Notes under the pieces: model-generated | Database searches by the model: none | Told to the model about the DNA's origin: nothing | The model's input: the letters and a program-made list of their open reading frames with translations, nothing else | Program-made: the position numbers and the translations under genes | Assembly (NCBI RefSeq): GCF_002009175.1 | Contig: NZ_CP018047.1 | Location: 62,001 to 126,000 of the forward strand | Reading direction: 5' to 3' | Length of the DNA: 64,000 bases | Source: Streptomyces niveus | GTDB lineage: Bacteria; Actinomycetota; Actinomycetes; Streptomycetales; Streptomycetaceae | Shown here: positions 1 through 24,348 of the stretch, piece after piece | Layout of the letters: each line of letters starts with the position of its first letter | How positions within the stretch are numbered: the first letter of the stretch is position 1

Positions 1-2
1 GG

Positions 3-2738
3 TGTGCGGCCGTCCTCACCGACGCCGGAGGTATGGATCGCTTCAGCGGACAGGGCCTCTCGGTTCTGGATGTCAGCGCGGTCCGCGGAACGTCTCCGAC
101 ACGCGCGACCGGCGCTCCGGAGACAACAGTCGACGGGACAGATCGCGCGTACATCATCTACACGTCCGGATCGACCGGCGCTCCGAAGGGGGTCGAGATC
201 GACCACGGATCGCTCGGTTACCTCTTCGACGAGGTCAACGAGCGCTACGGCATCGGTCCGGAAGACCGGGTGCTTCAGTTCGCGGCCACTACGTTCGACA
301 CCTCCATCGAGCAGATCCTCGTCACACTGCTGAACGGCGCGGCGCTGATTCTCCCGGATCGCCTCTGGGCACCGAGTGAACTCTCCGGCGAGTTGACCAA
401 GCACCGCGTAACTGTCATGGACCTGACTCCCTCTTATTGGCGCGCCTTCCTGTCCGAGCTCGCCGGCCCGCGGCCCGCCGAGCTCCCGGTCCGGCTGACG
501 ATTGTGGGCGGCAGTGCAGTGCATGCAGTCGATTGCAGAACTGCGCTGCGCCTCATGCCGGACTCGCGGCTGGTGAACGCGTACGGACTGACCGAGACGA
601 CGATCACCTCATCCACGATGGAGATCACACCGCAAGTCCTGCCCGAGCACGGGTCCGCCCCGGTCGGCCGGCCGCTGCCGCACACCGCCGTGCATATCCT
701 CGACAAGGACATGCACCCTGTTGGGCCGGGCCAGATCGGTGAGATCTACATTTCCGGGCGTGGTGTCGCGCGGGGTTACCTGACGGAGAGCGCCACCCAC
801 GCACGGTTCCTGCCTGATCCCCACGCGGAGCGATCCGGAACGCGGATGTACCGCACCGGAGACCTCGGCTGCTGGACATCCGACGGAAACCTCGAGATCA
901 CGGGGCGCGCCGACCGGCAGATCAAGGTGCGCGGTTTCCGCGTCGAGCCGGGCGAGATCGAGGAGGCACTGACTTCGCACGAGCTTGTCGCCGACGCCGC
1001 GGTGAAAACGTACGACCGCCGAGGCGAAGTTGAGATCGCCGCGTACTACGTCTTGACTGCGGCCGATACCCGCGCCCTCAGCTCACGCGACCTGCGTGCC
1101 CATGCCGCCGAACGTCTGCCCAGCTATATGGTCCCGTCGGTGTTCGTCCAACTCGACAAGATGCCGGTGAAGACCAACGGCAAGGTGGACCTGGAGGCCC
1201 TGCCAGAGCCGGACAACGCACTGACGCCGGCATCCGCGGCCTCAGCGAGTGAATCGCAGCAGGCGGGGAGTCTGGTCGAACAAGCCGTGGCCGGGATCTG
1301 GCGCCAAGTGCTCGGCCTGGACGAGGTAAAGCCGGATGGCAACTTCTTCGAACTCGGCGGCAACTCGATCTTGGCAGCCCAGCTTCTTGCGAAGGTGCGG
1401 GCTTCCCTCGGCCTCATGATCACTCAGGTGCGTCCGTTGATCCGGCTCCTGCTCGACGACGCGACGCTCCGCGGTTTCGCGGCTGCGGTGGAGTCGGCGA
1501 GGGCAGGGACGTTCTCCGACGCCGACACGAAGACCGTGAACTTTGACGCCGAAGCCGTTCTGGACGTACCTGTCCAGCGAACGCCGGCAAATCCTGCCCT
1601 GTGGCAGAAGCCGGCCAACATCTTCCTCACCGGCGCCACCGGATTCCTCGGCATCTACCTGCTGCGCGAATTGCTGGCAACCACCGACGCGACCGTGCAC
1701 TGTCTCGTACGGGCCGACGGTCACACCCACGCGATGGATCGCATCCAGGCGAACGCACGGCACTACTTCAAGGACGACCTGTCCGAACACCGAGAGTCCG
1801 GAAGGATCTCCGCCATCCCCGGAGATCTGGCCGAGCCACGCCTCGGTCTATCGGAAGAGAAGTTCGACCAACTGGCCGGCCTCGTCGACGTCATCCACCA
1901 CCCCGGCGGCCTCGTCAACTTCATCTATCCCTACACACACATGCGTGCGGCCAACGTCGAGGGCACACGCGAGATCATTCGTATGGCCGCCCGGTACCGC
2001 AACGCCCCGGTGCACTACACCTCGACCATGGCCGTGATCTCCGGTTTCGGAACCGCGGGAGTCCGGCACGTCACCGAGCACACTCCTGCCGCCCACGTCG
2101 ATCACCTGTCCGTCGGCTATGTCGAAAGCAAGTGGGTCGCCGAGGCGCTGCTGCAGAACGCCGCGGAGCAAGGCCTTCCCGTGGCCATCTACCGGGCCGC
2201 CGACATCTCGGGCGACCGCGAGACCGGAGCCTGGAACACGGCAACGGAGATGTGCGCGATGAAGAGGTTCATCGTGGACACGGGCACCTCACCCATCGCT
2301 GAACTGCCCCTCGACTACACCCCGGTGGACTGCTTCGCGGCCGCGGTGGCCCACATCGCCGCGCGAGCACTACCGGCGGGAGAGGTCTATCACCTCACCA
2401 ACCCGGGCAAGGCGAACGTCGCGGTCCTCACCGAGCGACTACGGGCGCACGGCCACACCATCCGCGACGTGTCCTGGAACGAGTGGCTCGACGAAGTGGT
2501 CAGGATCGCGGTTGAACAGCCCGACCACCCCATGACGCCCTTCGCTCCGCTTTTCATCGACCGGTGCTCCACGGGCGTGATGAGCGTGGCGGAAATGTAC
2601 CTGGAGACGACCTTCCCGGTCTTCACCCGGGACAACGTCGACGCTGCTCTGTGTGACAGCGGCATCGAGATCCCCACAGTGGACCGCGAGATGCTCGATC
2701 GGTATATCCGGTATCTCACCGACATCGAATTCCTGTGA
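3..2738 (+). CDS. NRPS module A-T-R with terminal thioester reductase (5' partial)
   Basis: The frame is open from the window edge, so the N-terminus is missing; 911 residues are visible. An adenylation domain comes first (A3 motif YTSGSTGAPKG near nt 160-192, A10-like TNGKVDLE near nt 1174). A carrier domain follows (GGNSIL, phosphopantetheine serine near nt 1371), then a NAD(P)H-binding thioester reductase domain (TGATGFLG near nt 1630, YVESKW near nt 2120). Such terminal R domains release the tethered peptide as an aldehyde or alcohol. My hand alignment to GrsA gives specificity-pocket residues D-T-E-D-I-G-A-I-T; acidic residues at the E and D positions suggest a basic side chain such as Lys or Orn. 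This is an inference. No C domain is visible here, but the megasynthase at 11321-22129 ends in an unpaired C domain, so the two proteins probably form the final module together. Confidence 0.93.
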   Translation, partial: CAAVLTDAGGMDRFSGQGLSVLDVSAVRGTSPTRATGAPETTVDGTDRAYIIYTSGSTGAPKGVEIDHGSLGYLFDEVNERYGIGPEDRVLQFAATTFDTSIEQILVTLLNGAALILPDRLWAPSELSGELTKHRVTVMDLTPSYWRAFLSELAGPRPAELPVRLTIVGGSAVHAVDCRTALRLMPDSRLVNAYGLTETTITSSTMEITPQVLPEHGSAPVGRPLPHTAVHILDKDMHPVGPGQIGEIYISGRGVARGYLTESATHARFLPDPHAERSGTRMYRTGDLGCWTSDGNLEITGRADRQIKVRGFRVEPGEIEEALTSHELVADAAVKTYDRRGEVEIAAYYVLTAADTRALSSRDLRAHAAERLPSYMVPSVFVQLDKMPVKTNGKVDLEALPEPDNALTPASAASASESQQAGSLVEQAVAGIWRQVLGLDEVKPDGNFFELGGNSILAAQLLAKVRASLGLMITQVRPLIRLLLDDATLRGFAAAVESARAGTFSDADTKTVNFDAEAVLDVPVQRTPANPALWQKPANIFLTGATGFLGIYLLRELLATTDATVHCLVRADGHTHAMDRIQANARHYFKDDLSEHRESGRISAIPGDLAEPRLGLSEEKFDQLAGLVDVIHHPGGLVNFIYPYTHMRAANVEGTREIIRMAARYRNAPVHYTSTMAVISGFGTAGVRHVTEHTPAAHVDHLSVGYVESKWVAEALLQNAAEQGLPVAIYRAADISGDRETGAWNTATEMCAMKRFIVDTGTSPIAELPLDYTPVDCFAAAVAHIAARALPAGEVYHLTNPGKANVAVLTERLRAHGHTIRDVSWNEWLDEVVRIAVEQPDHPMTPFAPLFIDRCSTGVMSVAEMYLETTFPVFTRDNVDAALCDSGIEIPTVDREMLDRYIRYLTDIEFL

Positions 2739-2745
2739 GCCGGAC

Positions 2746-3531
2746 ATGTTGATCACGAGCCTGCCTCGGCCCAAGCCGGCCTGGGAATTCATGGACCTGA
2801 CAGCCGCCCCCGTCAACGGGCCGGTCGCGTTCGGAGACGACCTTCGCCCCCAGAGCTTGCTCAGCGCTTATCGGCAGGGACTGTTTCCGTTCCCCGCCGA
2901 CTCCATCGAGCACCAGTTCCTCAACGAGATGAGCTACGAGCCCGAGGTGGCGGCGGGTCGGGTGAAGCTGCTCGCCGACTCCAAGGAGCCCTATGCGGTC
3001 GCCTGGTGCTCACCGGACCCGCGGCCGCTCATTCTCGTGGACCAGGCTCGGGTCCAGCGCAGCCTGCGCCGCCATCTACGCAGTAAGACAAGCTGGACAA
3101 CCACAGTCGATGTCTGCTTCGAACGAGTCGCCTCCCAGTGCCGGGAGGGCCGCTCCGAGCGATGGCTCACCGACGAGTTGCTTGCCAGCCTGTGCCGTCT
3201 GCACGAGTGCGGATACGCACACAGCGTGGAGGTCTGGGACGACGGCGAGCTCATCGGAGGCACCTTCGGCATGCGGATCGGAGCAGTCTTCAGCGCCGAC
3301 TCGCAGTTCACCCTGCGCAGCGGGGCGGGCAAAGTCGCCGTCGCCGAGCTGACACGACGGTTCGCGGAAGTGGGCGGTGTCGCCATCGACGTCCAGCACG
3401 ACGGCGACCACGCGCGGCTGCTCGGGGCGCGCCCCGTCCCCCGGTCGCGGTACCTCGAATTGCTCCGCACCCCCCACAAGGGCTCCGCCCTCCCCACTGG
3501 CCCGCAGCCCGCCCGTCGACTCGCCGACTGA
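2746..3531 (+). CDS. Leucyl/phenylalanyl-tRNA-protein transferase (Aat)-like enzyme
   Basis: A 261-residue member of the Aat family, which moves an aminoacyl group from charged tRNA to an amine. Family hallmarks include RQGLFPFP near the N-terminus, WCSPDPRPL, LHECGYAHSVEVW and a C-terminal AIDVQ followed by LGARPVPRSRYLELL. The Asp and Gln of the catalytic D-x-Q segment are kept. Several normally conserved positions differ: the GES segment reads ADS, SK reads GK, and the Asn after DCQ is Gly. It starts 7 nt after the NRPS stop and lies inside the biosynthetic operon, so I infer a role in the natural product (tRNA-dependent amide formation) rather than N-end-rule protein turnover. A downstream ATG at 2791 is an alternative start. 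Family call firm; role speculative. Confidence 0.85.
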   Translation: MLITSLPRPKPAWEFMDLTAAPVNGPVAFGDDLRPQSLLSAYRQGLFPFPADSIEHQFLNEMSYEPEVAAGRVKLLADSKEPYAVAWCSPDPRPLILVDQARVQRSLRRHLRSKTSWTTTVDVCFERVASQCREGRSERWLTDELLASLCRLHECGYAHSVEVWDDGELIGGTFGMRIGAVFSADSQFTLRSGAGKVAVAELTRRFAEVGGVAIDVQHDGDHARLLGARPVPRSRYLELLRTPHKGSALPTGPQPARRLAD

Positions 3532-3568
3532 CACCGACGCGGCACGACATCACTTCAGGAGATCTGCC

Positions 3569-4342
3569 ATGCCCATCAGCACTGTCGGCTCCGAACTGCA
3601 CGTCACCAGTCTCGCCGAACGGCCCGACCTGGAATTGGCGATGCTGACGATGGAATCGTCCTGGCCGGCATACATCCGCCCTGATCCGACCCTGATCCAC
3701 TGGGTATTCGAGCGGCACGCCCAACACCAGCTTGTGGTGTTGGACGACGAGAACACGGTCGTCGCCCGCGCGGCCAGCGTGCCACTCGCCTGGGACGGCG
3801 AGCCGGACACCCTGCCCGACACGGGCTGGGACGAGGCGCTTCGCCAGTGCATGGGGGACACCTACTCCGGTCGCGAACTCAACACACTGTGCGCGATGGA
3901 GATCGCCGTGGTCCCCGGCCGCAAAGCACAGAACCTGTCAGGACAGGCCCTGGAGGCCCTCAAGGACCACGGGCGACGCATGGGCTACGGCGAGATGGTT
4001 GCACCGGTGCGGCCAAGCCTCAAACACACTCGGCCGCAGCTGTCGATGGGCGAATACGCCGAGCGTACGCGTCCTGACGGGCTGCCCGAAGACCCCTGGC
4101 TGCGTGTGCATGTACGTGCGGGCGGCCAGGTGCTGAAGGTATGCCCGGTGTCGATGACGATCTCCGGCAGCCTGTCGCAGTGGCGTGACTGGACCGAGTT
4201 GCCTTTCGACACCAGCGGCCCCGTCGATGTACCCGGCGCCCTGAGTCCGGTCGTCGTGGACGTCGAGCACGATCACGCCGTCTATATCGAGCCCAACGTC
4301 TGGGTCCGACACCGGCTTTCCGGCCGAGCCCAGCACGCCTGA
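3569..4342 (+). CDS. GNAT-like acyltransferase in the biosynthetic operon
   Basis: This 257-residue soluble protein begins at an ATG with a fair Shine-Dalgarno (cttcaggag) about 9 nt upstream. The middle section (LNTLCAMEIAVVPGRKAQNLSGQALEALKDHGRRMGYGEMVAPVRPS) has the layout of a GNAT acetyl-CoA-binding core: a strand, V(x)P, a loop in place of the canonical Q/RxxGxG/A, then a helix. The C-terminal third has no family I recognise. It follows the Aat-like gene by 37 nt and precedes the methyltransferase. It could N-acylate the amino starter or product, or act in self-protection. The fold call rests on a weak motif, so an unrelated protein is possible. Confidence 0.55.
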   Translation: MPISTVGSELHVTSLAERPDLELAMLTMESSWPAYIRPDPTLIHWVFERHAQHQLVVLDDENTVVARAASVPLAWDGEPDTLPDTGWDEALRQCMGDTYSGRELNTLCAMEIAVVPGRKAQNLSGQALEALKDHGRRMGYGEMVAPVRPSLKHTRPQLSMGEYAERTRPDGLPEDPWLRVHVRAGGQVLKVCPVSMTISGSLSQWRDWTELPFDTSGPVDVPGALSPVVVDVEHDHAVYIEPNVWVRHRLSGRAQHA

Positions 4343-4429
4343 AAACCCAAGCACCCAGAGCGCTCCGAACGTCTCTGTTCCCGAACCGACCCGGCCCTTT
4401 GACGATCGATCAACGGAGGACAAATCCCG

Positions 4430-5482
4430 ATGACTGCGATGACGAAGAACCCTGCCGAGAAGCTGCGTCTGCGAGCTGCGCTGATCGAGCGGATCGGCGG
4501 ATACATGACCGCCCACTCGATCGGTGTGGCCGCCGAGCTGGGGATAGCCGACCTGATCAAGGACGATGTACGCGGTAGCGAAGAGCTGGCGGCCGAGAGC
4601 GGGACGCACGAGCCGGCTCTGCGGCGTCTGTTGCGCACACTGACGGCTGTCGGGCTCACCACCGAGCCCGAGCCGGGCCGCTTCGCGCTGACCGAGGTCG
4701 GCGCCCAGCTGCGCTCCGACTCTCCCGACTCTCTTCGCGCCTTCTCCCGCATGTTCTGCCACCCCATTCTCATGAACGCGTGGCAGGGCCTCGGCCACGC
4801 CGTCACCACCGGGGAGCGGGCATTCGACCACGTGTACGGCAAGGACTTCTACAGCTACGTCGCCGACCAGGGCGAGGCCAACAGGCTGTTCAACGAGGCG
4901 ATGGGCGAGGAGTCGAGGATCGCGGCCGCGCAGCTCGCGACCGGGTACGACTTCGCGCACACCAAGAAGGTGGTGGACCTCGGCGGCGGCGACGGCACTC
5001 TCCTGGCGGCGATCCTGCCCCTCCAGCCCCACCTCCAGGGAATCGTGTTCGACAGCCCCAGTGGCGTGGCCGAGGCACCCGAGGTCCTCAAGAACGCCGG
5101 CATCTCGGACCGCTGCGAGGCGCGGCCGGGCGACTTCTTCCAGGACATCCCCACCGACGGCGACCTCTACATAATCAAGAGCGTCTTCCAGGACTGGAGC
5201 GATGAGGACTCCCAGGCCCTGCTCCGCTCCTGCCGGGCGCAGATGCCTGATTCCGCCACCCTCCTGATCGTGGGTTCCGTACTCCCCGATACCGCCTCCA
5301 TGGACCAGCCGATCATGTTCTTCACCGATCTGAACATGCTCGTCAACACCGGTGGGCGGGAGCGGACCGAGAGCGAGTTCCGGACCATGCTCAAGGAGAC
5401 GGGCTTCACCGTACGCTCCGTGGGGCTCGGTGCGGCCGGACCACTCTCCATCATCGAGGCCACTCCCATGGCGGCCCAGTGA
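4430..5482 (+). CDS. SAM-dependent O-methyltransferase-family protein with altered catalytic residue
   Basis: A 350-residue class I methyltransferase of the acetylserotonin/DnrK type. An N-terminal winged-helix dimerisation region (IGVAAELGIADLIKD, EPALRRLLRTLTAVG) is followed by the SAM-binding glycine loop VVDLGGGDGTLLAAIL near residue 182 and an acidic GDFF motif. A GGAGG-like Shine-Dalgarno (acggagga) sits upstream of the ATG. In classical members the segment after the SAM site reads VLHDWDD with a general-base His. Here it reads SVFQDWSDE, so the His is Gln. DnrK-type relatives also work without that His, so the enzyme may still methylate, or may have another role such as decarboxylation or hydroxylation support. 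The stop overlaps the next start (GTGA), which indicates translational coupling. Confidence 0.88.
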   Translation: MTAMTKNPAEKLRLRAALIERIGGYMTAHSIGVAAELGIADLIKDDVRGSEELAAESGTHEPALRRLLRTLTAVGLTTEPEPGRFALTEVGAQLRSDSPDSLRAFSRMFCHPILMNAWQGLGHAVTTGERAFDHVYGKDFYSYVADQGEANRLFNEAMGEESRIAAAQLATGYDFAHTKKVVDLGGGDGTLLAAILPLQPHLQGIVFDSPSGVAEAPEVLKNAGISDRCEARPGDFFQDIPTDGDLYIIKSVFQDWSDEDSQALLRSCRAQMPDSATLLIVGSVLPDTASMDQPIMFFTDLNMLVNTGGRERTESEFRTMLKETGFTVRSVGLGAAGPLSIIEATPMAAQ

Positions 5483-7254
5483 CGGCGCCGAGCTTCGGTG
5501 CGGAGCTGTTCCTCGGACGGCTCCGCACCGGCCTCCTCAGCATGCCCACCGGCGACCCGAGGCGTCTTGACCACGAGGACGACCAATTCCTCGCCCGTTT
5601 GAAGGAGTTCTGCGAGAAGAATATCGATGGCCACCTCATCGAAAGGGAAGACCGCATCCCGGACGAGGTGATCGAGGGACTGAAGGACATCGGTGCCTTC
5701 TGCATCAAGATCCCGCGGGAATACGGCGGGCTCGGCCTGTCCGGCCTCTGCTACCTCCGGGCGCTGATGATCGTCACCACCGTCCACTCGGCTCTGGGGG
5801 AACTGCTGGCGGCCCACCAGGCCATCGGACTGCCTCAACCGATCACGTTGTTCGGCACCGACAGACAAAAGCGCGAGTTCCTGCCCCGCTGCGTGCGAGA
5901 GATCTCCGCCTTCGCTCTCACCGAACCGGACATCGGGAATGACCCCTACCGGATGCACACCACCGCCGTCCCGGACAGGGCGTCGGGCACGTACACGCTC
6001 AACGGCGTGAAGTTGTGGACGACCAACGGGGTCATCGCGGACCTGCTCGTGGTGATGGCGATGGTGCCTGCCTCGGACGACGGTCCCGGCGGGATGACCG
6101 TGTTCGTCGTGGAGGCCGACTCCGCCGGCGTGACGGTGGAGCATCGAAACTCCTTCCTCGGTCTTCGCGGCCTTGAGAACGGTGTCATCCGCCTGCACGA
6201 GGTCGTCGTCCCGGCAGGCAACCGGGTCGGTGACGAGGGCGCGGGCCTGGACATAGCCCTTGCGGCACAGGACACCGGTCGGCTCTCGTTGCCGGCTGTC
6301 TGCGCCGCCGCCGCGAAATGGAGCCTGAAAGTCGCTCGCGAATGGGCCGGAGCCCGGGTTCAGTGGGGACGGCCGATCGGTGAGCAGGAGGCAGTCGCCG
6401 GCAAGCTGTCATTCATCGCGGCGACCGCATTCGCCCTGGAGGCGATGGTCGAGGTCTCCGGACGACTCGCTGACCTGGGCGTCAATGACACCCGGCTCGA
6501 CGCCGAGTTGGCGAAGCTCTTCGCTTCCGAACAGGCATGGGTGGTCGCCGACGAGCTGGTGCAGATACGCGGCGGCCGGGGGTACGAGACGGCTCAGTCG
6601 GCGGTGGCCCGGGGCGAGCGTGGTGTCCCGGCCGAGCAGCTTCTGCGCGACCTGAGGATCGGAAGGATCTTCGACGGCTCCACTGAGGCCCTGCGAACCT
6701 TCATCGCCGCGGCGGTGGTTGAGCGCCACCGCACTGAGGACACGACGTCAGCGGCGGTCGAAGGGGATCAGCGGAGTGGCGATGGTGACGACGCGGATCC
6801 GCTGGCGGGACACAAGCGCTTCGTCGACCGGATCGCGCGCCAACTCGTCAGCTTGATAGGCGAGTTCACGGATCAAGGCGACACCGAGCTCGAGAACCGC
6901 CAGCGCTACCTGGGTCGCATCGTCGACATCGGATCCGAGCTGTATGCCATGAGCGCAAGCTGGACCTATGCGGAGGCCCTGACGGACCGGGGCGACGCGC
7001 CGGCCCAACTCGCCGATGCCTTCTGTTTCCAGGCCCGGCGACGTGTCACGGAGTTGTTCGAGCAACTGACGAACAACACTGACGCCGCCGATCGCATCAT
7101 CGCCCACCACGTGCTCGACGCCCGCTACACGTGGCTGGAGGAAGGCATCATCGACGCCTCCATCGACGGCCCCTGGATCGCGGAACCCACACCCGGTCCG
7201 GCAACAGGTCCGAATGTGCGCCGCACCGTCCCGGCCGGCGGGCACGCCGGCTGA
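5479..7254 (+). CDS. VLCAD-like acyl-CoA dehydrogenase family flavoprotein
   Basis: This 591-residue protein starts at a GTG overlapping the methyltransferase stop by 4 nt. Residues about 30-400 are an acyl-CoA dehydrogenase core: KIPREYGGLGLSG, FALTEPDIGNDP (flavin-binding region), LNGVKLWTTNG, and a C-terminal IRGGRGYETAQ plus LLRDLRIGRIFDGSTEALR. The extra ~150 helical residues resemble the tail of VLCAD-type enzymes. The position normally occupied by the catalytic Glu (FEGT) is Asp here (FDGS), so ordinary alpha,beta-dehydrogenation may be changed. In biosynthetic clusters such proteins desaturate carrier-bound acyl or aminoacyl chains, or act as flavin oxidases or decarboxylases. I infer it works on an intermediate held on the ACP or T domains encoded nearby. 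Confidence 0.9.
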   Translation: MTAPSFGAELFLGRLRTGLLSMPTGDPRRLDHEDDQFLARLKEFCEKNIDGHLIEREDRIPDEVIEGLKDIGAFCIKIPREYGGLGLSGLCYLRALMIVTTVHSALGELLAAHQAIGLPQPITLFGTDRQKREFLPRCVREISAFALTEPDIGNDPYRMHTTAVPDRASGTYTLNGVKLWTTNGVIADLLVVMAMVPASDDGPGGMTVFVVEADSAGVTVEHRNSFLGLRGLENGVIRLHEVVVPAGNRVGDEGAGLDIALAAQDTGRLSLPAVCAAAAKWSLKVAREWAGARVQWGRPIGEQEAVAGKLSFIAATAFALEAMVEVSGRLADLGVNDTRLDAELAKLFASEQAWVVADELVQIRGGRGYETAQSAVARGERGVPAEQLLRDLRIGRIFDGSTEALRTFIAAAVVERHRTEDTTSAAVEGDQRSGDGDDADPLAGHKRFVDRIARQLVSLIGEFTDQGDTELENRQRYLGRIVDIGSELYAMSASWTYAEALTDRGDAPAQLADAFCFQARRRVTELFEQLTNNTDAADRIIAHHVLDARYTWLEEGIIDASIDGPWIAEPTPGPATGPNVRRTVPAGGHAG

Positions 7255-7280
7255 GAACCGACCACGGCAAGGAGCGTTCC

Positions 7281-7946: not shown

Positions 7947-8014
7947 CGCCCCTCCACCGGATCCCGCACGTACGGCACCGAACTCCGTGAACCAGCTAGC
8001 GGCAAGGGATACAC

Positions 8015-9244: not shown

Positions 9245-9374
9245 CCATGTGCAGATGAACGTCCCCGTACCGGTCTCCCAGCGATGGGCTGACCGGCGCG
9301 GGGCGCCTCGCGGTCCCGAAGCCGGCGCCGCTCGCTCCCCATGGCCGCACCCTCCCGCACCCCTGGAGATTCGG

Positions 9375-9959: not shown

Positions 9960-9987
9960 AGCGCCGGACGCGGAGGTCTGAAATTCG

Positions 9988-11301: not shown

Positions 11302-11320
11302 CGAGAAGGAGCGCACACTC

Positions 11321-17300: not shown

Positions 17301-20300
17301 ACCCCGCCGCGGGCCGGGTCGTGGTCCTCGTACACACCTATCTTGGTGCGGACGCGGAGATCGCACGAACCGAGGCTTACCAGCCATTTGTCTCGTACCT
17401 TCGCTCCTCTATGTCTCTCTTCAACCAAGTCACCAACAGCCTGGGGTTCGAAGTCGACCTGGAGAACACGCCCCAGGAAGACGTGGACTTCCTGCTCAAC
17501 CGGGCCTACGAGAGTTACTGCACTTCTCGTGCTCTGATCGGTGATGCCGAGTCAGTGGCCGGAACGCTGCAGAGCCTCACGCGAGCCGGGGCGGATGAGA
17601 TCGCCTGCTTCGTGGACTTCGGTATCCCAGCCGACAAGGTGATCGCCGCGCTTCCCGCGATTGACGGGCTCCGGGCCCGTATACAGCACACGTCTGCGGC
17701 GACCGCCGAGCCCATTCGAAGGCCTCTGTCGCCCGCCCAGCGCCGTATCTGGCTTGTGGAACAGCTGTATCCGGGCACCAACATGTACCACGAGCCGAAG
17801 GCGATCCGGCTGGACGGACCACTGGATGTGCCGAGACTGAGGTCGGCCGTGCGGCGCACCGTCGAGCGTCAACCTGCCCTGCGTACGGTCTTCGCAACAG
17901 TTGACGGTGTCCCGTACAAGGAGACCCGCGAGGACATCGTGATCGACTGTCCAGTGGAGGACCACACGGGATCCGCCGAGGCCGAGGCGTTGCGCTCAGT
18001 TCTGAGGACCGAGGGCACCACGACCTTCGATCTGGCGGAAGGTCCGCTACTCTCCTGCCGACTGTTGCGGCTCTCGGACGAACGGCACGTCCTGTTTCTG
18101 CGGGCCCACCACATGGTCTTCGACTCGTCGTCCACCGTCGTCTTCACTCGTGAACTCGCCACTCACTACCGTCATTCGCGCGACGGCAACCCCGTTCCCG
18201 GGCCGCTTGTCACACATCCGGAGCCCGTTGTACCCCCTGAGCGAAAGGCCGAAGTACTCGCCTTCTGGCGACGCGAACTGGAGGGCGCACCCGATGTGTC
18301 CCTTCCCTCAAGCCGGCCTCGTCCGTCCGTCCGCTCCGGCGCGGGCGGAAGCCACACCCACACGCTGGATGCTCCGATGGTCGCCCAGCTGAGGAAGTTC
18401 GCCGGAGACAGACGTTCGACTCTGTTCATGGTGATGACTGCCGCCATAGGTGCCGTACTCGGCCGGTTCAGCGGCCAGGAGGACATCGTGCTCGGAACGG
18501 CTGTGGCGGCCAGGCCGGAGAGCGCAGAGGACGAGATAGGCCTGTTCCTCGACACCGTCGCGCTCCGTCTCGATCTCACCGGTGACCCGGGATTCACCGA
18601 ACTTCTGCGCCGAGTGAAGGAACGCAGCACGGACGCCTACGAACACCGCGACATCCCCTTCGACGAGATCGTCGCCGAGCTCAATCCCCATCGCGACCCC
18701 AGCCACAACCCGTTCTTCCAGGTGATGGTGGAGTACGAGAACGAAGGAGAGGTGGAGTTCGATCCGCCGGAGCTGACCGCGACGCTTATCGACATGCCCT
18801 CACAACGGGCTCCCTTCGACCTCAGTTTCTACCTGACGCACCACCAGCAGGGCCTGCGGTTCATGATCGAGTACGACACGGATCTCTTCGCGGAGAGTGA
18901 CGTGCGACGGCTCGTGGACTACGTGGAGCAGGTGCTGCGGCGGACCCTTGCGGAGCCCAACGCCCCGGTGTCCGCGCTCACCGCCCTCACCGACACCGAT
19001 CGCACAGACCTGGTCCGACTCGGCCGGCAGCTGGAGCCTCTGCCCGACGTCGAGGAGACTCTGCACGGACTGTTCGAAGCACAGGCGCGCCGGACTCCGG
19101 ATGCCATAGCTCTGCTGACTGATACAGGACAGTTGGCCTACAGCGAGCTTGACCGGCGGGCATCGCATCTTGCGCGACGGCTGCGGTCACAAGGAGCCGC
19201 CCGCGGCGAACGGGTCGCGGTGGTTCTCCCACGCGGTCCCGAGTTGATCACGGCGCTGCTGGCAGTGCTGAAGAGCGGGGCCGCCTACCTGCCTGTCGAT
19301 GTCTCCCTGCCGCCGGCCCGCGTCGAGCAGCTACTCGCCGACGGCCTTCCCGCACTGGTGGTGACGGATAAGGCTACGGCGGGCAGACACGCCGCTCTTC
19401 GGGAGTGGCGCGTGCATACGGTGGATCAGGCCTTCGACGGAAGCCGGCCCGGACATACCCAGGATGGCGAGGTGTATGACGTACGTGCCGAAGATCCCGC
19501 CTACTGCATCTACACTTCGGGCTCCACTGGCCATCCGAAAGGTGTCGTGGTGCCCCACCGGGGCCCCGTCAACCTGGTGTTGCACCACATCGAACAGCAT
19601 CCGGCCCTCCGCACAGTGCAGTGGACATCGCCTGCCTTCGACGTGAGTGTGCAGGAGATCTTCACCACGCTGGCATCCGGTGCGGCCCTCGTGCTCGTCG
19701 ACGATGCGGTGCGGCACGATCCGGTGGTACTCGCCGAGACTCTGCGCCGCCATGAGGTGCAACGGATTTTCATGCCCAGCACCCCGCTGCGATATCTGGT
19801 CGAAACTGGCCCCCGCCTGCCGGCGGTTCGGGAGCTGTTCTCAGCGGGAGAAGCCTTGCAGCTCACCCCGGCGTTTCTCCGGTTCCTCGCCCTGCATCCG
19901 GAGTGTGCTCTGTACAACCAGTACGGCCCGACGGAAACCTCCGTGATCGCCACCTCTCACCGGGTGGACCCCAGCAAGGGCACCCGCCCGCCGATCGGCA
20001 CTCCTCTCCCAGGTGTGCGCATCAAGCTGCTCGATGTCGCCGGCGTCGAAGTGCCACGGGGTGTCGCGGGTGAGATCCACGTGGGCGGCACCGCGGTGTC
20101 GTACGGCTACCATCGCCGTCCGAACGAGACAGCCGCGGTCTTCCGATCCACGGACGCAGGGGAACTCTTCTACCGCACAGGAGATCTAGCCCGGTGGAAC
20201 TCTGACGGATCGCTCGAGTATCTGGGTCGCATCGATGACCAGGTCAAGATCAGGGGCCACCGCGTTGAACCTGATGAGATCCAGCAGGCTCTCATAGGAC

Positions 20301-22129
20301 GGCCGGACATCCGTGACGCAGCCGTCCTGCCCCGCAAGGACCGCCACGGGGAGACGGAACTCGTCGCGTACATCACGCCGACGACTCCGGACCGTCGGGA
20401 CTCCACCGAAGACCTGCGCGCCGAACTGACCGCCGAACTTCCCGGCCACCTGGTGCCCAGGCATCTGGTGTGGCTGGAGAGGCTGCCGGTCAACACTGCC
20501 GGAAAGCTGGACCGTCACCGACTGCCCGCCCCCGAGGCAGGCGTCAGCCCGGTGAACGGGGACGAGAAACCTGGCACCCCGTTGGAAGAGACGCTCCACG
20601 AAATGTGGTGCGCCGAACTGGGAAACAGCAACGTGCCGGTCACTCGCTCGTTCTTCGAACTCGGCGGCCATTCGCTCAGCGCCGTGCGCTTGTTGAACAG
20701 GCTGGCCGTGGAGCAGCGCTTCACCCTGTCCATGGCGGACTTCTTCCGCGCCCCGACGATCCGTTCCGTTGCCCACCGCATGGACCCCGGCGCCAAACCG
20801 CGGGTGGACGCGGTCCCGATGCCCGCGACCCTCCGCAGACTGTGGCTCCGCCATCACAAGCACTCGGACCCCAGCGTCTACAACGTTGCCCACCGGGTCG
20901 ATCTGCGAGGTGCACTGGACCCGGCCGGCCTGGCCCAGGCACTCACGGCACTCGTGGAACGTCACGATGCCCTGCGGAGCAGGCCCCTGCTCCGCAACGG
21001 TGAACTTCTGATTGAGACAATGCCGGATGTTCCGGTCGACGTACCCATCGATGGCCTCACCAAGCTCGACGCTGCGGCCATAGACCGCTGGTGCCAGGCG
21101 GAGGCGACACAGCCGTTCACGATGGACCGAGCGCCTCTCTTCCGCTTCAGGCTCGGCCGACAGGCCGAGAACCGGTGGGTCCTGATGGTCGTTCTTCACC
21201 ACGCGGTCTGCGATGGCTGGTCGATGAACCTTCTCTGGAATGAGCTTCAGGCGCTCTACAACGACGGAGGCGCGAAGCCCATCGACCTGCCTATTGCTCA
21301 GTTCACGGACTACGCGCGCTGGGAGGCGGAACAACTCGAAGGTCCGCGCCGAGCACCGCTCGAGGCCTTCTGGAAAGCTGAGCTTGGCGACGTCCCCCTG
21401 CGCCTGGAACTGCCGTCGGATCGCCCTCGGCCGGTCGAACTCTCCGGCACAGGAGCCCTGCACCAACATCGCATCGACGGCGCCGTAGCAGGGCGCGTCG
21501 CCGAGGTCGCCTCACGTCTGGGCACTACGCCGTACATCGTCCTCGCTGCCACTTTCGCCGTATGGGCTGCTCGGATGCACGACAGGTCCTCCGACGTGGT
21601 GTTCGCCGCCTCAAGTGCCAACCGCGCCGGCCGTCAAGAGCACGAGAACGTGGTGGGTCTGCTGGGAGACGCCGTTCTGCTGCGCGCCCGAATCTCCGAC
21701 GCCGCCACGTTCGCCGATCTCGTCAGCAACCTGGGCGACACGCTCTTCAACGCTCTCGACCATCAGGCGCTGCCGTTGAACGACATCGTGCGTCTTCTGG
21801 CGCCCGACGAGGTGGACAGGCACTATCCCACGGTCCTGTTCACTGTGGTCACCACCCCGCCACCCAACCTCCAGCTGGACGGGTTGACGGCGAAGATTCG
21901 CAGCGAGCCCACCGTCGGTGTCGCCCGAAACGAGCTGTACGTGGTTCTGGCGCCTCAGGAGGGAGGCATCGACGCGATCTTCGAGTACTCCACGGATCTC
22001 TTCGACGCGACGACGATCACCCGCTGGGCTGAGGACTTCACGCAGTTGCTCTCGCTGGCCACGGACCGCTCAAACGTGTCGTTGTCGGAGCTGATGCGTG
22101 CCGGCCTGCCCGGGGCTTCGGAGAGTTGA
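11321..22129 (+). CDS. Hybrid PKS-NRPS megasynthase: AL-ACP-KS-AT-ACP-MOX-C-A-T-C
   Basis: 3602 residues from an ATG preceded by gagaaggag. Domains: AMP ligase (SSGSTGVPK ~181), ACP (GMNSL, Ser ~609), KS (~680-1100; TACSTS Cys ~844, AHGTGT, GHLDSC), AT (GHSVGEY Ser ~1283, AFHS, so malonyl-type), ACP (GADSL, Ser ~1605), luciferase-like monooxygenase (~1770-2120; LWFPERHFSSFG, GLCFASGWS), C (HHMVFDS ~2263), A (YTSGSTGHPKG ~2730), T (GGHSL, Ser ~3118) and C (HHAVCDG ~3293). There is no KR, DH, ER or TE. The layout parallels mycosubtilin-type starter modules, with a monooxygenase in the aminotransferase position. My reading of the A-domain pocket is D-V-Q-F-F-A-Q-V-I, close to Pro-type codes (inference). 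The final C domain needs a partner A domain, supplied by the A-T-R protein at the window start. A TTA Leu codon lies at 12290-12292. Confidence 0.95.
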   Translation: MDRTPKEACYRGPELKFTDDDPRNAVSALLRAADRFPRAGVITIGDDGRTSTLLYPDLLRRARRMLTGLREQGLRPGADVVLAGLPLPDFFPAFWACLLGGARPVAIADRVEPGAPVLERLRHTCQLLGSPIVVTDGDGAATLTAVAPSLRPVTAEECLRHPPAESQEEPEGSDVALLMLSSGSTGVPKAAQLTHEGLAEFAASSRRILDVQPDDTTVNWLPVDHSGAFLLYHLLEVFVGCTNVHASPGHVLAAPLRWLDLIDEHAAKHSWAPAFAYRLITEAIRECPDRTWDLSGTKTLVCGGEQIPPQVMEGFLAAVAPFGLRAEHLVPVWGMAETVTAITYGKFDGPAAVQRIRKDSLGGRLVYADEDTPERDILTFVSVGAPAHGAVVRVVDEHGGALPEERIGRLQVRSAARVTRGYVRNPEADHAAFPSGRDWLDTGDQAFLADGQVTITGRSKDLIIVNGHNVYCYEVEDVATALPEIQAAGVAACGVPDPDTGSESLVVFFVGLGSIEVDERAASRIKAAVFAKLRLTVARAISVAETEFPRTPAGKIRRAELRDRLLSGDFDDAPGNVRNVLAAVQESVAAVLGHTANAETPFYELGMNSLALTRLRGRLEERLGRAIPQTALFEHPTVSALASHLAAPPALSPAPELSLGSTTAPEAPSREPVVAEAPDHRIAVIGMSARFPGASSVEAFWTNLREGKDSISVFPRRETVPGHVPVGGVLEDIEGFDSDFFGMSPREAELTDPAHRLFLECCHEALEEAGHAVPDRDSRVAVFAGSGMNLYDHQNAPAAAPPDTDGDPVTDLLTVMGRQPDFLATRVSYRLGLTGPAIGVQTACSTSLVAVHLAVQSLITGEADMALAGAAAVHTPQDSGYRSHPGSILSPTGRCRPFDADADGTVGGNGVAAVLLKRLDRALADGDTIQAVIAGSAVNNDGAGKAGFSAPGLVGQVEVVRQALRKAAVPPDTVSYVEAHGTGTQLGDPVEFEALSRAFGEETELTGFCTLGSVKSAVGHLDSCAGMAGLIKTVLMLKHRTLIPTLHLRRANPDLALDSGPFILGTELKPWTARPGLPLRAGVSALGVGGTNAHVILEEAPPRPVPPSARYPVLVPVSARDPETLAELVADLRQRLVDQPHLAPADVAATLALGRPHRKHRAAAVGRTTEELAQALGNEVVSGSPLAKQAFAYAGQGSARPGMAREIYEAHPGARRVLDLCDRVHTQQFGGTLLPLLLDSTIEHSGAVWPTGTAQPALFAHQMALTELWRAVGVRPALLLGHSVGEYAALCAAGAFSIEDGLRITGWRGRLMEHQCRPGGMLTLQADAETAQRIAQASGAEPAAFNGPLAHVVAGSTDVLRETRRLLDQEGIPWRALPVDRAFHSTELDPLLSELRSHAENLELRPLRVPVVSTLDGALRPVGWRVDAEYVVSQARKPVRFDLATATAVREGCSDFLEIGSGDVLTRLGRHCLPESRWMPGQGTGTEQWRGFLVSVGQSYRRGAEINWQAISHEGGRIPLPGHPLKRRRYPLLNPVTGGRKSSANAELTTRLSATAPAATPARKVSSMALDEITASIRQLTARKLAVDPEDVEPDRSFFALGADSLTLMSMTTELQRLHGVRIPIRELFADADSPRKLAELVVRLGGEPRPALPQTAPAETIGRESLKEERPQEVPASVPRATPETEPEHSTGLQSVVTQQLRVAGQLVDQVTDLMSRQLDMLSRETPVPADVAPTPLVHSIVEDQNTGTAALPQAPTAPAPLPVANHGRFDNSGCDFSLYFFGDYPETGTADTYGLIMKAAEFADRHGFHALWFPERHFSSFGAPFPNPSVLAAALAARTNRVRLHAGSVVLPLHHPVRVAEEWSVVDNLSGGRVGLCFASGWSAKDFALAPEVFGAHREAMYERMETVRTLWSGQSVTMPGGDGKPVEIELQPRPVQDMPPMYVAVVGNPDSYRRAAAEGLGIVTNLMSQSVEQLAENIALYRRTRTEHGLDPAAGRVVVLVHTYLGADAEIARTEAYQPFVSYLRSSMSLFNQVTNSLGFEVDLENTPQEDVDFLLNRAYESYCTSRALIGDAESVAGTLQSLTRAGADEIACFVDFGIPADKVIAALPAIDGLRARIQHTSAATAEPIRRPLSPAQRRIWLVEQLYPGTNMYHEPKAIRLDGPLDVPRLRSAVRRTVERQPALRTVFATVDGVPYKETREDIVIDCPVEDHTGSAEAEALRSVLRTEGTTTFDLAEGPLLSCRLLRLSDERHVLFLRAHHMVFDSSSTVVFTRELATHYRHSRDGNPVPGPLVTHPEPVVPPERKAEVLAFWRRELEGAPDVSLPSSRPRPSVRSGAGGSHTHTLDAPMVAQLRKFAGDRRSTLFMVMTAAIGAVLGRFSGQEDIVLGTAVAARPESAEDEIGLFLDTVALRLDLTGDPGFTELLRRVKERSTDAYEHRDIPFDEIVAELNPHRDPSHNPFFQVMVEYENEGEVEFDPPELTATLIDMPSQRAPFDLSFYLTHHQQGLRFMIEYDTDLFAESDVRRLVDYVEQVLRRTLAEPNAPVSALTALTDTDRTDLVRLGRQLEPLPDVEETLHGLFEAQARRTPDAIALLTDTGQLAYSELDRRASHLARRLRSQGAARGERVAVVLPRGPELITALLAVLKSGAAYLPVDVSLPPARVEQLLADGLPALVVTDKATAGRHAALREWRVHTVDQAFDGSRPGHTQDGEVYDVRAEDPAYCIYTSGSTGHPKGVVVPHRGPVNLVLHHIEQHPALRTVQWTSPAFDVSVQEIFTTLASGAALVLVDDAVRHDPVVLAETLRRHEVQRIFMPSTPLRYLVETGPRLPAVRELFSAGEALQLTPAFLRFLALHPECALYNQYGPTETSVIATSHRVDPSKGTRPPIGTPLPGVRIKLLDVAGVEVPRGVAGEIHVGGTAVSYGYHRRPNETAAVFRSTDAGELFYRTGDLARWNSDGSLEYLGRIDDQVKIRGHRVEPDEIQQALIGRPDIRDAAVLPRKDRHGETELVAYITPTTPDRRDSTEDLRAELTAELPGHLVPRHLVWLERLPVNTAGKLDRHRLPAPEAGVSPVNGDEKPGTPLEETLHEMWCAELGNSNVPVTRSFFELGGHSLSAVRLLNRLAVEQRFTLSMADFFRAPTIRSVAHRMDPGAKPRVDAVPMPATLRRLWLRHHKHSDPSVYNVAHRVDLRGALDPAGLAQALTALVERHDALRSRPLLRNGELLIETMPDVPVDVPIDGLTKLDAAAIDRWCQAEATQPFTMDRAPLFRFRLGRQAENRWVLMVVLHHAVCDGWSMNLLWNELQALYNDGGAKPIDLPIAQFTDYARWEAEQLEGPRRAPLEAFWKAELGDVPLRLELPSDRPRPVELSGTGALHQHRIDGAVAGRVAEVASRLGTTPYIVLAATFAVWAARMHDRSSDVVFAASSANRAGRQEHENVVGLLGDAVLLRARISDAATFADLVSNLGDTLFNALDHQALPLNDIVRLLAPDEVDRHYPTVLFTVVTTPPPNLQLDGLTAKIRSEPTVGVARNELYVVLAPQEGGIDAIFEYSTDLFDATTITRWAEDFTQLLSLATDRSNVSLSELMRAGLPGASES

Positions 22130-22208
22130 TGGCGCCAGGGGCTGGACGTGAGCACCGTCTGGCCGCCGCCTGAACGGTGAAGAAGGCACCGGGCGTTGGC
22201 AAGCGTCG

Positions 22209-22242
22209 AGGGCCGGTGGAAGTCTTCCTTTCCACCGGCCCT
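22209..22242. terminator. Bidirectional hairpin terminator closing the biosynthetic operon
   Basis: A perfect 13-bp inverted repeat (AGGGCCGGTGGAA / TTCCACCGGCCCT, arms 22209-22221 and 22230-22242) with an 8-nt loop. It lies between the megasynthase stop and the convergent MFS stop, so it can serve both strands. There is no long T tract, as is common for GC-rich actinomycete terminators. Confidence 0.8.
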
Positions 22243-22256
22243 TGCTCAGCACTTGC

Positions 22257-23645
22257 TCACTGGGAGCTTGGCTTGGGAGTGATGAAGAACGCCAGGAGGG
22301 CGGCAGCCGTGGCGACGACCGCCCCTGTTGTGAAGCCACGCGAGAAGCCGGCGGCGTCGGTACCGGCGATGCTTGCCGCAGCCATGCTCGACACGACAGC
22401 GGCGCCGAGCGATGCCCCGAACTCGTGGAATGTGCTGACGATTCCGGATGCCAGGCCGGCTTCGTGCGGCTCGATCTGGCCCAACGCCGTGGCGGATGCG
22501 ACCACGAAAACCACTCCGGTGCCCGCGGCTGCTACTGCGACGCCGATCACCATTGCCGTGGTCCCACCCCAGAGGGCGGGGACCACCATGCCGGCAGCGG
22601 CGAGGAGCAGTCCAAGCACCCCCAGGGTGCGAGGTCCGGTACGGCCGATGATCCGGCCTGCGGCACTCGCTCCGGCCATGGTCGACAGGGCCACAGGAAG
22701 GAAGAGAAGGCCAGTGGTCAGCGCACCGTACTCGCGATAGTCCTGCAGATAGAACGTGCCGAGGAAGAAGACCATGATCATCAGGGCGGTGGCCACAAGG
22801 ATCAACAGAGTTCCCGCCGCTACCGGTCGGCGGATCAGCAGTTTGACATCCATGAGGGGACTCGCGGCCAGACGCTGACGTGCCACGAAGGCCACGTAAA
22901 GGACCGCCGCAACGACAAGGAAGGCTGCGGTCGTCAGGGTCGCCCACCCCTGGTCCCCCGCCCTGATCAGGCCATAGGTCAGGGTGCCGGTGGCTGCCGT
23001 CACCAAAACGGCGCCCGGTATGTCGAGTCGGCCCCTGGCGGCTGGGCGCGGCTGCGGCGGGAGTTGGACACGGAGCGTCAGAAGCACCACCACTCCCACG
23101 GGGATGTTGATGAAGAAGACCCAGGGCCACCCCGGCCCCGCCGTGAGAAGCCCGCCAAGCAGGACTCCCAGAGCCGCGCCAGTGCCACCGAGCGCGGACC
23201 AGATCCCGAGCGCCTTGTTCCGTTCGTCCCCCTCGAAAAGGGTGACGACCAGTGAAAGTGCTGCCGGGGAAAGGATCGCTGCGGCAAGACCCTGTGCGAC
23301 ACGCCCTCCCAGGAGCATGGGCCCGGATGTAGCCAGGCCCGCGACCAGCGATGCCGTGGCGAACAGCAGCAACCCCAAAAGCGCCAGTCGGCGAGCGCCG
23401 AACAGATCGACCGCGCGACCGCCGAGAAGCAGAAGGCCGCCGAAGGTAAGGGTGTAGCCGCTAACCACCCACGTGAGCGTCTCGCGCCCCAGTCCGAGCT
23501 CCGCCCCCATGTGAGGCAAGGCGATCGCTACGACGGTGACATCCAGGATCAGCATGAGTTGCGCGATGCCGACGAGTCCAAGGATCTTCCATCGTCGTGG
23601 ATCCGGTCCGTGGGTCTCTTGAGTGGAGGCTACGGATTCGGTCAT
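22257..23645 (-). CDS. DHA2-type MFS multidrug transporter
   Basis: A 462-residue, about 14-helix transporter of the EmrB/QacA type. Motifs include ILDVTVVAIALPHMGAELG in helix 1, LGGRAVDLFGARRLALLG (motif A) and the motif-C region SALGGTGAALGVLLGGLL. I chose the ATG at 23645, preceded on the minus strand by a GAGGGG site; a TTG three codons upstream is possible. It is convergent with the megasynthase and divergent from a TetR regulator 94 nt away, the classic drug-efflux plus repressor arrangement. It probably exports the cluster product or gives resistance to it, but could be a stand-alone efflux unit. Confidence 0.92.
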   Translation of the reverse strand: MTESVASTQETHGPDPRRWKILGLVGIAQLMLILDVTVVAIALPHMGAELGLGRETLTWVVSGYTLTFGGLLLLGGRAVDLFGARRLALLGLLLFATASLVAGLATSGPMLLGGRVAQGLAAAILSPAALSLVVTLFEGDERNKALGIWSALGGTGAALGVLLGGLLTAGPGWPWVFFINIPVGVVVLLTLRVQLPPQPRPAARGRLDIPGAVLVTAATGTLTYGLIRAGDQGWATLTTAAFLVVAAVLYVAFVARQRLAASPLMDVKLLIRRPVAAGTLLILVATALMIMVFFLGTFYLQDYREYGALTTGLLFLPVALSTMAGASAAGRIIGRTGPRTLGVLGLLLAAAGMVVPALWGGTTAMVIGVAVAAAGTGVVFVVASATALGQIEPHEAGLASGIVSTFHEFGASLGAAVVSSMAAASIAGTDAAGFSRGFTTGAVVATAAALLAFFITPKPSSQ

Positions 23646-23654
23646 GACGTTCAA

Positions 23655-23739
23655 CCCCCTCAGGGTAAGTCAAACAGATATGTTCGAGTTCCGTGGGTTA
23701 CTGTAACTCATACAAGGCCGTTCAACTTGAGGGGTGGAC
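23655..23739. promoter_or_regulatory. Divergent TetR/MFS control region with palindrome
   Basis: The gap between the divergent MFS and TetR genes contains a perfect 11-nt palindrome GTTACTGTAAC at 23697-23707. It is embedded in a wider GAGTT (23686-23690) / AACTC (23705-23709) dyad. Each gene also has a GAGGGG-type ribosome site at its edge of the gap. The likely role is TetR operator overlapping one or both promoters. This is inferred from position and symmetry. Confidence 0.6.
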
Positions 23740-24348
23740 ATGTCGAGCGCAGTGGCCAAGCCGGGGCGTAGAGCCGATGCTCAGCACAACGTGGAGAAGA
23801 TCCTTGCCGCGACCGTCACCTGCCTCAGCCGGAACCCCGACGCGAGCGTGAGCGAGATCGCACAGGCCGCCGGGGTGGGCCGCGTGACTCTCTACGGGCA
23901 CTTCTCATCCCGGGACGTGCTGGTCGAGGCCTCACTGAAACAACTTCTCGCCGAGGGAGACCAAGTCCTGGAAGGGTTGGACCTCACAGGCAATCCTCGG
24001 GAAGCGCTTCGGGCCCTGATTGAGTCGAGCTGGCTACTGATCGCCCAGTCGAGCGCCGTCCTCGCAGCGGCGCAGTCGATCCTGCCGCCCGGACGAGTGC
24101 GCCTGCTGCATGCCAAGCCCGCCCAGCGGGTCGGGGATCTGATCAGTCGAGGCCAGGCCGAGGGGGTCTTCCGCGCGGACCTTCCTGCCAACTGGCTGGC
24201 CAACCTCTTGCACCACGTCATCAAAGGCGCGGCGACAGATGTGGCCGATGGGCGGTTGGACCAGGCAGACGCCCCGCGCTTCATCTCAGAGACTGTCCTT
24301 GCCGCCTGCAGGCCCGTGGGCAAGGAGCGGCATCAGAGCAGTTGTTGA
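23740..24348 (+). CDS. TetR-family repressor
   Basis: About 202 residues with an N-terminal helix-turn-helix (VSEIAQAAGVGRVTLYGHFSSRDVLVEASL) and a variable helical ligand-binding domain (FRADLPANWLANLLHHVIKGAA). The ATG at 23740 has GAGGGG six nt upstream; a GTG two codons earlier is an alternative. It is transcribed away from the DHA2 MFS gene and presumably represses it until a ligand binds, perhaps the cluster's own product. It may also control itself through the shared intergenic region. Confidence 0.93.
   Translation: MSSAVAKPGRRADAQHNVEKILAATVTCLSRNPDASVSEIAQAAGVGRVTLYGHFSSRDVLVEASLKQLLAEGDQVLEGLDLTGNPREALRALIESSWLLIAQSSAVLAAAQSILPPGRVRLLHAKPAQRVGDLISRGQAEGVFRADLPANWLANLLHHVIKGAATDVADGRLDQADAPRFISETVLAACRPVGKERHQSSC

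What the first reader, a model, noticed from the sequence alone, without database searches (positions are those of the whole stretch)
1..24348. Cluster layout predicts a reductively released acyl-dipeptide with unusual tailoring set
Seen directly: AL-ACP-KS-AT-ACP-MOX-C-A-T-C plus a separate A-T-R protein, with Aat-like, GNAT-like, OMT-like, ACAD, TenA-like, P450 and PPOX-like genes in one operon. Knowledge: MOX-containing starter modules and R-domain release are each known. I cannot match this combination to a described cluster. Inference: the product is an acyl/beta-keto-Pro-like-basic-like aldehyde or cyclic imine, further oxidised.
Basis: partly seen in the sequence, partly recalled or inferred. 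Interest (0 to 1): 0.85.

Follow-up and report, generated by a model that had tools for sequence, protein, structure and literature searches.

The report
Livipeptin-type cluster interrupted by another
The region looks like two separate natural-product gene sets lying side by side, one of a known tRNA-using type and one a compact fatty-acid/amino-acid assembly line, so the single new hybrid pathway that was suggested is unlikely.

Summary
The genes are there, but the one-pathway reading is not supported. The host is very probably Streptomyces niveus SCSIO 3406 (same length, 7,990,492 bp); its genome paper lists region 16,717-104,129 as most similar to livipeptin. A-T-R, Aat, GNAT-like, OMT and ACAD have the gene content of livipeptin, where a condensation-less A-PCP-R protein works with a tRNA-using leucyl/phenylalanyl transferase. 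Upstream DNA gives A-T-R no C domain. These five plus TenA-like, P450 and PPOX-like genes occur together in 6 of 6 relatives, with no megasynthase in view. Against strain SCUT-3 the DNA aligns to base 9922 and resumes at 22257, so MFS plus megasynthase is a 12.3-kb block missing there. The megasynthase has orthologues in 14 other sampled genomes, none with an Aat hit; in 10 examined plus the window, domain order and terminal C are kept (11 of 11), with an MFS gene just upstream in 8 of 11. Best reading: a livipeptin-type aldehyde pathway beside an autonomous 2-hydroxy-3-oxoacyl-(Pro-like) assembly line. New details: the GNAT-like protein has the CurA/SxtA/GphF loading fold; the conserved gene set is wider.

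The parts
1..2738 (+). A-T-R 'C-minus' NRPS (starts at about -309, outside the window; 1015 aa); A code DTEDIGAIT; R-domain motifs present
2746..3531 (+). Leucyl/phenylalanyl-tRNA transferase-like protein (Aat, tRNA-utilising)
   Evidence: PF03588 E 3.6e-42
3569..4342 (+). GNAT-like acyltransferase of the CurA/SxtA/GphF loading (GNATL) fold; candidate N-acyl capping enzyme
4430..5482 (+). O-methyltransferase (Methyltransf_2)
5479..7254 (+). Acyl-CoA dehydrogenase-like flavoprotein
7281..7946 (+). TenA/heme-oxygenase-like fold protein; activity unassigned
8015..9244 (+). Cytochrome P450
9348..9959 (+). PPOX-like (PNPOx_N) protein; exact start not fixed
9923..22256 (.). 12.3-kb block absent from the matching place in strain SCUT-3 (which has 183 bp instead)
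9988..11301 (+). MFS transporter, partner gene of the megasynthase
11321..22129 (+). FAAL-ACP-KS-AT-ACP-MOX-C-A-T-C megasynthase (open frame from 11210)
22257..23654 (-). MFS transporter that follows the PPOX-like gene directly in SCUT-3; belongs with the livipeptin-type block
23734..24348 (+). TetR-family regulator, same

Best explanation
Two autonomous biosynthetic units lie next to each other. (1) Window -309 to 9959 plus 22257-24348 is a livipeptin-type, tRNA-using pathway. A-T-R loads a basic amino acid (probably Arg), the L/F transferase adds Leu or Phe from aminoacyl-tRNA in place of a C domain, the GNATL-fold protein caps the N terminus, the R domain releases an aldehyde, and OMT, ACAD, TenA-like, P450 and PPOX-like proteins tailor it. 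(2) 9988-22129 is a two-gene unit, MFS exporter plus one megasynthase. FAAL activates a fatty acid, KS-AT adds one malonyl unit without reduction, the MOX domain hydroxylates the alpha carbon of the beta-ketoacyl-ACP, C-A-T adds a Pro-like residue, and the terminal C domain releases the chain by transfer to a free nucleophile or by ring closure. Shown here: gene content, domain order, motifs, synteny, and the block missing from SCUT-3. Inferred: all chemistry.
For: Livipeptin precedent: Sli0883 A-PCP-R, Sli0884 L/F transferase and Sli0885 N-acyltransferase were needed together, activity was lost with RNase; Sli0886 OMT and Sli0887 butyryl-CoA dehydrogenase are conserved next to them. Genome paper: region 16,717-104,129 'Livipeptin 100'. 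Eight genes together in 6 of 6 relatives, megasynthase in view in 0 of 6. DNA homology to SCUT-3 runs -362..9922, then 22257..24330. Megasynthase orthologues: same domain order and terminal C motif HHA[IV]CDG in 11 of 11; MFS directly upstream in 8 of 11, no other neighbour group shared by more than 4 of 11. Of 14 other genomes with the MOX region at 65-75% identity, none is among the 69 genomes with an Aat hit. MOX is closest to PuwE (6ket, E 8e-118) and of the MupA type (TIGR04020); MupA hydroxylated only the beta-ketoacyl-ACP substrate.
Against: The two units lie in the same direction with a 28-bp gap between the PPOX-like and MFS genes, so they may be co-transcribed in this strain. The terminal C domain has no following carrier in its own protein, and a C-less A-T-R protein is near. 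Ten Aat genomes do have a MOX region at 58-64% identity, on another contig or at least 1.7 Mb away. No direct sequence comparison with Sli0883-0887 was made. Livipeptin has no solved structure.
Confidence: 0.8

Rival explanations
1. One hybrid assembly line: the megasynthase passes its acyl-(Pro-like) chain through its terminal C domain to the amino acid on A-T-R, and the R domain releases a lipodipeptide aldehyde or imine.
For: Terminal C domain with intact HHAVCDG and no following carrier, and a nearby A-T-R without C; all on one strand with short gaps.
Against: The terminal C is equally intact in 10 orthologues with no A-T-R among their fetched neighbours. A-T-R orthologues in 6 of 6 relatives have no megasynthase in view. 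The A-T-R/Aat pair has its own tested logic in S. lividans. The boundary of the block missing from SCUT-3 coincides with the MFS-megasynthase unit.
Confidence: 0.1
2. A sub-case of the best explanation: the two units make separate products that are co-expressed (a gene-cluster merger without chemical coupling).
For: The extra block lies between the PPOX-like gene and the MFS/TetR genes of the livipeptin-type block, in the same direction.
Against: No expression data; only the window shows this arrangement (0 of 6 relatives).
Confidence: 0.35
3. A sub-case of the best explanation: the megasynthase product is released by ring closure (attack by the alpha carbon or by the 2-hydroxyl) rather than by transfer to an external amine or alcohol.
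For: Two-gene unit with no other widely conserved gene to supply a nucleophile; a 2-hydroxy-3-oxoacyl chain offers internal nucleophiles (inference).
Against: By sequence the terminal C is closest to peptide-synthetase C domains in the PDB (Txo2, Txo1).
Confidence: 0.3

Closest known systems
Livipeptin system of Streptomyces lividans 66 (Sli0883-0887; PMC10548850: outline, introduction, results and discussion, and word passages seen)
   Same: C-less A-PCP-R protein, L/F-transferase-type tRNA enzyme, N-acyltransferase, O-methyltransferase and acyl-CoA-dehydrogenase-type protein.
   Different: The paper's main text has 0 occurrences of thiaminase, TenA, P450 or pyridoxamine; here TenA-like, P450 and PPOX-like genes are linked in 7 of 7 loci (window plus 6). 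The N-acyltransferase-like protein is predicted here to have the CurA/SxtA/GphF fold.
Puwainaphycin PuwC-PuwE starter logic (PMC4219810: passages seen)
   Same: FAAL start, an extension module without reduction, a monooxygenase domain of the same kind next to an NRPS module.
   Different: No aminotransferase here; everything in one protein; Pro-like residue instead of Val; terminal C domain.
MupA alpha-hydroxylation module of mupirocin (PMC10952193: passages seen)
   Same: Luciferase-like monooxygenase of the MupA family (TIGR04020) that acts on beta-ketoacyl-ACP.
   Different: MupA acts in trans; here the domain is built in.
CurA GNATL / SxtA / GphF loading GNAT domains
   Different: Stand-alone protein beside a tRNA-using peptide system rather than a PKS loading domain.

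Membership tests
Livipeptin-type tRNA-using peptide aldehyde system | A-PCP-R protein without C domain | tested here: met
   AMP-binding, PP-binding and NAD_binding_4 matches, no Condensation match (part within the window); 1015 aa, no HHxxxD
Livipeptin-type tRNA-using peptide aldehyde system | Adjacent L/F transferase homologue | tested here: met
   7 bp after A-T-R; PF03588 E 3.6e-42
Livipeptin-type tRNA-using peptide aldehyde system | N-acyltransferase, O-methyltransferase and butyryl-CoA-dehydrogenase-like genes next to it | tested here: met
   the acyltransferase by predicted fold only
Livipeptin-type tRNA-using peptide aldehyde system | A domain specific for arginine | tested here: inconclusive
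   Code DTED[IV]GA[IV]T in 36 of 36 A-T-R loci other than the window, one of them partly covered; the livipeptin authors predict Arg; no activity test
Livipeptin-type tRNA-using peptide aldehyde system | tRNA dependence and protease inhibition | not testable with these tools
   needs an in vitro assay
Livipeptin-type tRNA-using peptide aldehyde system | Sequence similarity to Sli0883-0887 themselves | not tested
   S. lividans 66 proteins were not fetched; the genome paper's antiSMASH row says Livipeptin 100
MupA/PuwE-type alpha-hydroxylating luciferase-like monooxygenase domain | TIGR04020 over cut-off | tested here: met
   462 bits, cut-off 244; PuwE 6ket E 8e-118
MupA/PuwE-type alpha-hydroxylating luciferase-like monooxygenase domain | Acts on a beta-ketoacyl-ACP | not testable with these tools
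   No KR, DH or ER domain among the Pfam matches of the protein, so the expected substrate would be present
GNATL (CurA/SxtA/GphF) decarboxylase/loading family | GNATL fold | tested here: met
GNATL (CurA/SxtA/GphF) decarboxylase/loading family | Catalytic His and Thr/Ser of the decarboxylases (recalled) | tested here: inconclusive
   His181 invariant 53 of 53 and aligned with a CurA His; by my own reading of that alignment the place of the recalled Thr holds Val (50 of 53), so decarboxylation is doubtful
Single hybrid lipodipeptide aldehyde cluster | Megasynthase and A-T-R inherited together | tested here: not met
   0 of 6 A-T-R relatives show the megasynthase in the fetched flanks; 0 of 14 other megasynthase genomes have an Aat hit

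The most novel reading that the evidence does not exclude
In this strain the inserted megasynthase has been captured by the tRNA-using system: its terminal C domain acylates the residue or the Leu-Arg dipeptide held on A-T-R, giving a lipopeptide aldehyde made jointly by PKS, NRPS and aminoacyl-tRNA logic, transcribed as one operon.
Probability: 0.08. Interest if true: 0.8.

Novelty: new member of a known kind. Interest (0 to 1): 0.35.

Why it matters
It corrects a tempting misreading in which neighbouring units are merged into one pathway. The livipeptin product has not been solved, and the wider conserved gene set (TenA-like, P450, PPOX-like) and the GNATL fold of the presumed capping enzyme give new handles on it. 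The two-gene megasynthase family, seen in a number of Streptomyces-family genomes with an orphan terminal C domain, is a compact target for heterologous expression.

Tried and rejected
Rejected: A-T-R with its own upstream C domain (none). Rejected: the upstream genes as part of this pathway. ScoE, FcoT, KS-AT-DH, saccharopine-dehydrogenase-like, ADH and Mtn genes have no match at E 1e-8 in the 55 kb fetched around the SCUT-3 block (L068-L070), and the isonitrile and methionine-salvage genes recur apart from each other elsewhere. Rejected: the frame 9341-9820 as a gene (no Pfam or NCBIfam family, no PDB match). Led nowhere: PDB sequence search with the GNAT-like protein alone (best E 0.34, to an endonuclease; CurA third at 0.85); plasmid search for a copy of the S. 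lividans SLP3 type (38 records, each under 60% identity; the ten rows shown are not Streptomyces); paper searches for a cluster or product of this make-up showed none in their listings (20, 4, 0, 3 and 0 papers listed). The library lacks most subscription journals and MIBiG is not held, so absence in print is not shown. The TenA-like protein as a canonical di-iron heme-oxygenase-like oxygenase: the fold fits, but only one His is invariant (H164), so this was left open. Specificity codes were read by anchor motifs, not by a predictor.

Full report
Where it is. The window is bases 62,001-126,000 of a single 7,990,492-bp contig. Streptomyces niveus SCSIO 3406 has the same length, and all 33 condensation-domain hits fall inside regions 1, 3, 6, 22, 24 or 25 of its genome paper's cluster table (PMC7987185, passages). 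That table's row for 16,717-104,129 reads NRPS-T1pks, most similar known cluster livipeptin, similarity 100.

Observation. The megasynthase is FAAL-ACP-KS-AT-ACP-MOX-C-A-T-C with the active-site motifs that I looked for, and the A-T-R protein, read through the left edge of the window, is 1015 aa without a C domain. An MFS gene stands just before the megasynthase.

A-T-R and its partners. Livipeptin in S. lividans 66 is made by an A-PCP-R protein without a C domain, a leucyl/phenylalanyl-transferase-type tRNA enzyme and an N-acyltransferase. [quoted passage not shown] The window has these five kinds of gene in a row. An Aat homologue occurs in 69 of 297 sampled genomes of the family, the window's own included. 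In 32 of 32 loci that I fetched of the more distant type (L071-L102; Aat 46-54% identical) A-T-R lies beside Aat, but none shows the GNAT, OMT, ACAD or TenA genes at E 1e-8, with roughly 13 kb downstream of Aat in view. The A-T-R code is DTED[IV]GA[IV]T in 36 of 36 loci (these 32 and the four named ones, one of them partly covered).

The conserved block. I took all loci found with the GNAT-like protein at 68% identity or more: four named ones and G543, G458 and G600 (3 of 372 sampled genomes of the genus, the window's own not counted among the 3). G458 is the S. eurythermus contig by its length and was counted once, so six relatives: SCUT-3, A3M-1-3, S. eurythermus, S. achromogenes, G543, G600. 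All 6 carry A-T-R, Aat, GNAT-like, OMT, ACAD, TenA-like, P450 and PPOX-like genes together; the last two are reversed in G543, and an MFS gene stands before P450 in A3M-1-3, S. eurythermus and S. achromogenes. The MOX and FAAL parts of the megasynthase have no match at E 1e-12 in any of the six. The view after the PPOX-like gene is about 2-2.5 kb in A3M-1-3 and S. achromogenes and some 20 kb or more in the others; before A-T-R it is under 1 kb in G543 and G600, about 6 kb in A3M-1-3, S. eurythermus and S. achromogenes and over 20 kb in SCUT-3. A whole-genome search with the MOX region found nothing better than 43% identity in SCUT-3, A3M-1-3 and S. eurythermus (S. achromogenes was not held). 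In the protein lists for Aat, GNAT and TenA (best 120 of each) I count by eye 22 contig lengths that occur in all three, a proxy for linkage that reaches into Actinophytocola, Micromonospora and Kibdelosporangium. Against cluster-specificity: TenA-like relatives occur in 110 of 297 genomes and GNAT-like ones in 204 of 372, most of them at lower identity.

The inserted unit. Against SCUT-3 the DNA aligns from -362 to 9922 at 82%, then from 22257 to 24330 at 81%; SCUT-3 has 183 bp between. So MFS plus megasynthase is extra here (or lost there). The megasynthase recurs: 14 other genomes of the 297 have the MOX region at 65-75% identity, and none of these handles is in the Aat list. Ten Aat genomes have a MOX region at 58-64%, on another contig or at least 1.7 Mb away. 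I fetched flanks for 10 of the 14. In these 10 plus the window the domain order is the same and the terminal C motif is intact (11 of 11); an MFS gene of one group is directly upstream in 8 of 11, and no other neighbour group is shared by more than 4 of 11. The A code is DVQFFAQVI in 9 of 11, with one and two changes in the other two; reading it as Pro-like is recall.

Against my reading. The genes are close and co-directional, and an orphan C domain next to a C-less A-T-R invites coupling. I keep this at about 0.1. Direct comparison with the S. lividans proteins was not made.

Verdict. Interest is moderate.

Noticed in passing
window -21039 to -5449 (L001 1-14551 and end of L002): Isonitrile-type genes upstream: a TauD protein very close to ScoE (PDB 6dch, E 3e-124), FcoT thioesterase, KS-AT-DH-ACP and AMP ligase, next to an A-T-TE NRPS that begins with a C domain, a PLP enzyme and a class II aldolase/HAD pair. 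ScoE, FcoT, KS-AT-DH and AMP ligase recur together in G234 and G100 (2 of 4 FcoT loci examined).
   Followed up: partly
window -5376 to -1024 (L001 14624-18976): A second methionine-salvage set with an MtnA-adenine phosphoribosyltransferase fusion, MtnB, an ARD-family MtnD-like protein and MtnP; the set recurs in 6 of 6 fetched fusion loci, without the ScoE/FcoT genes. The genome also has another MtnA at C1:5043547.
   Followed up: partly
G000:C1:6697424-6698149 (L106): A second Aat homologue (37% identity) within another NRPS region of this genome.
   Followed up: no
G000:C1:4890183-4890926 and many Streptomyces: A paralogue of the GNATL-fold protein (51% identity here): matches to the query occur in 204 of 372 genomes of the genus, nearly all listed ones at 45-57%; function unknown to me.
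   Followed up: no
window 28056-30424: MFS and PLP-dependent (PALP) genes on the minus strand; homologues follow the PPOX-like gene in S. eurythermus and S. achromogenes, so they may once have belonged to the livipeptin-type block.
   Followed up: partly
window 30611-31486: IS4/5-type transposase gene.
   Followed up: no
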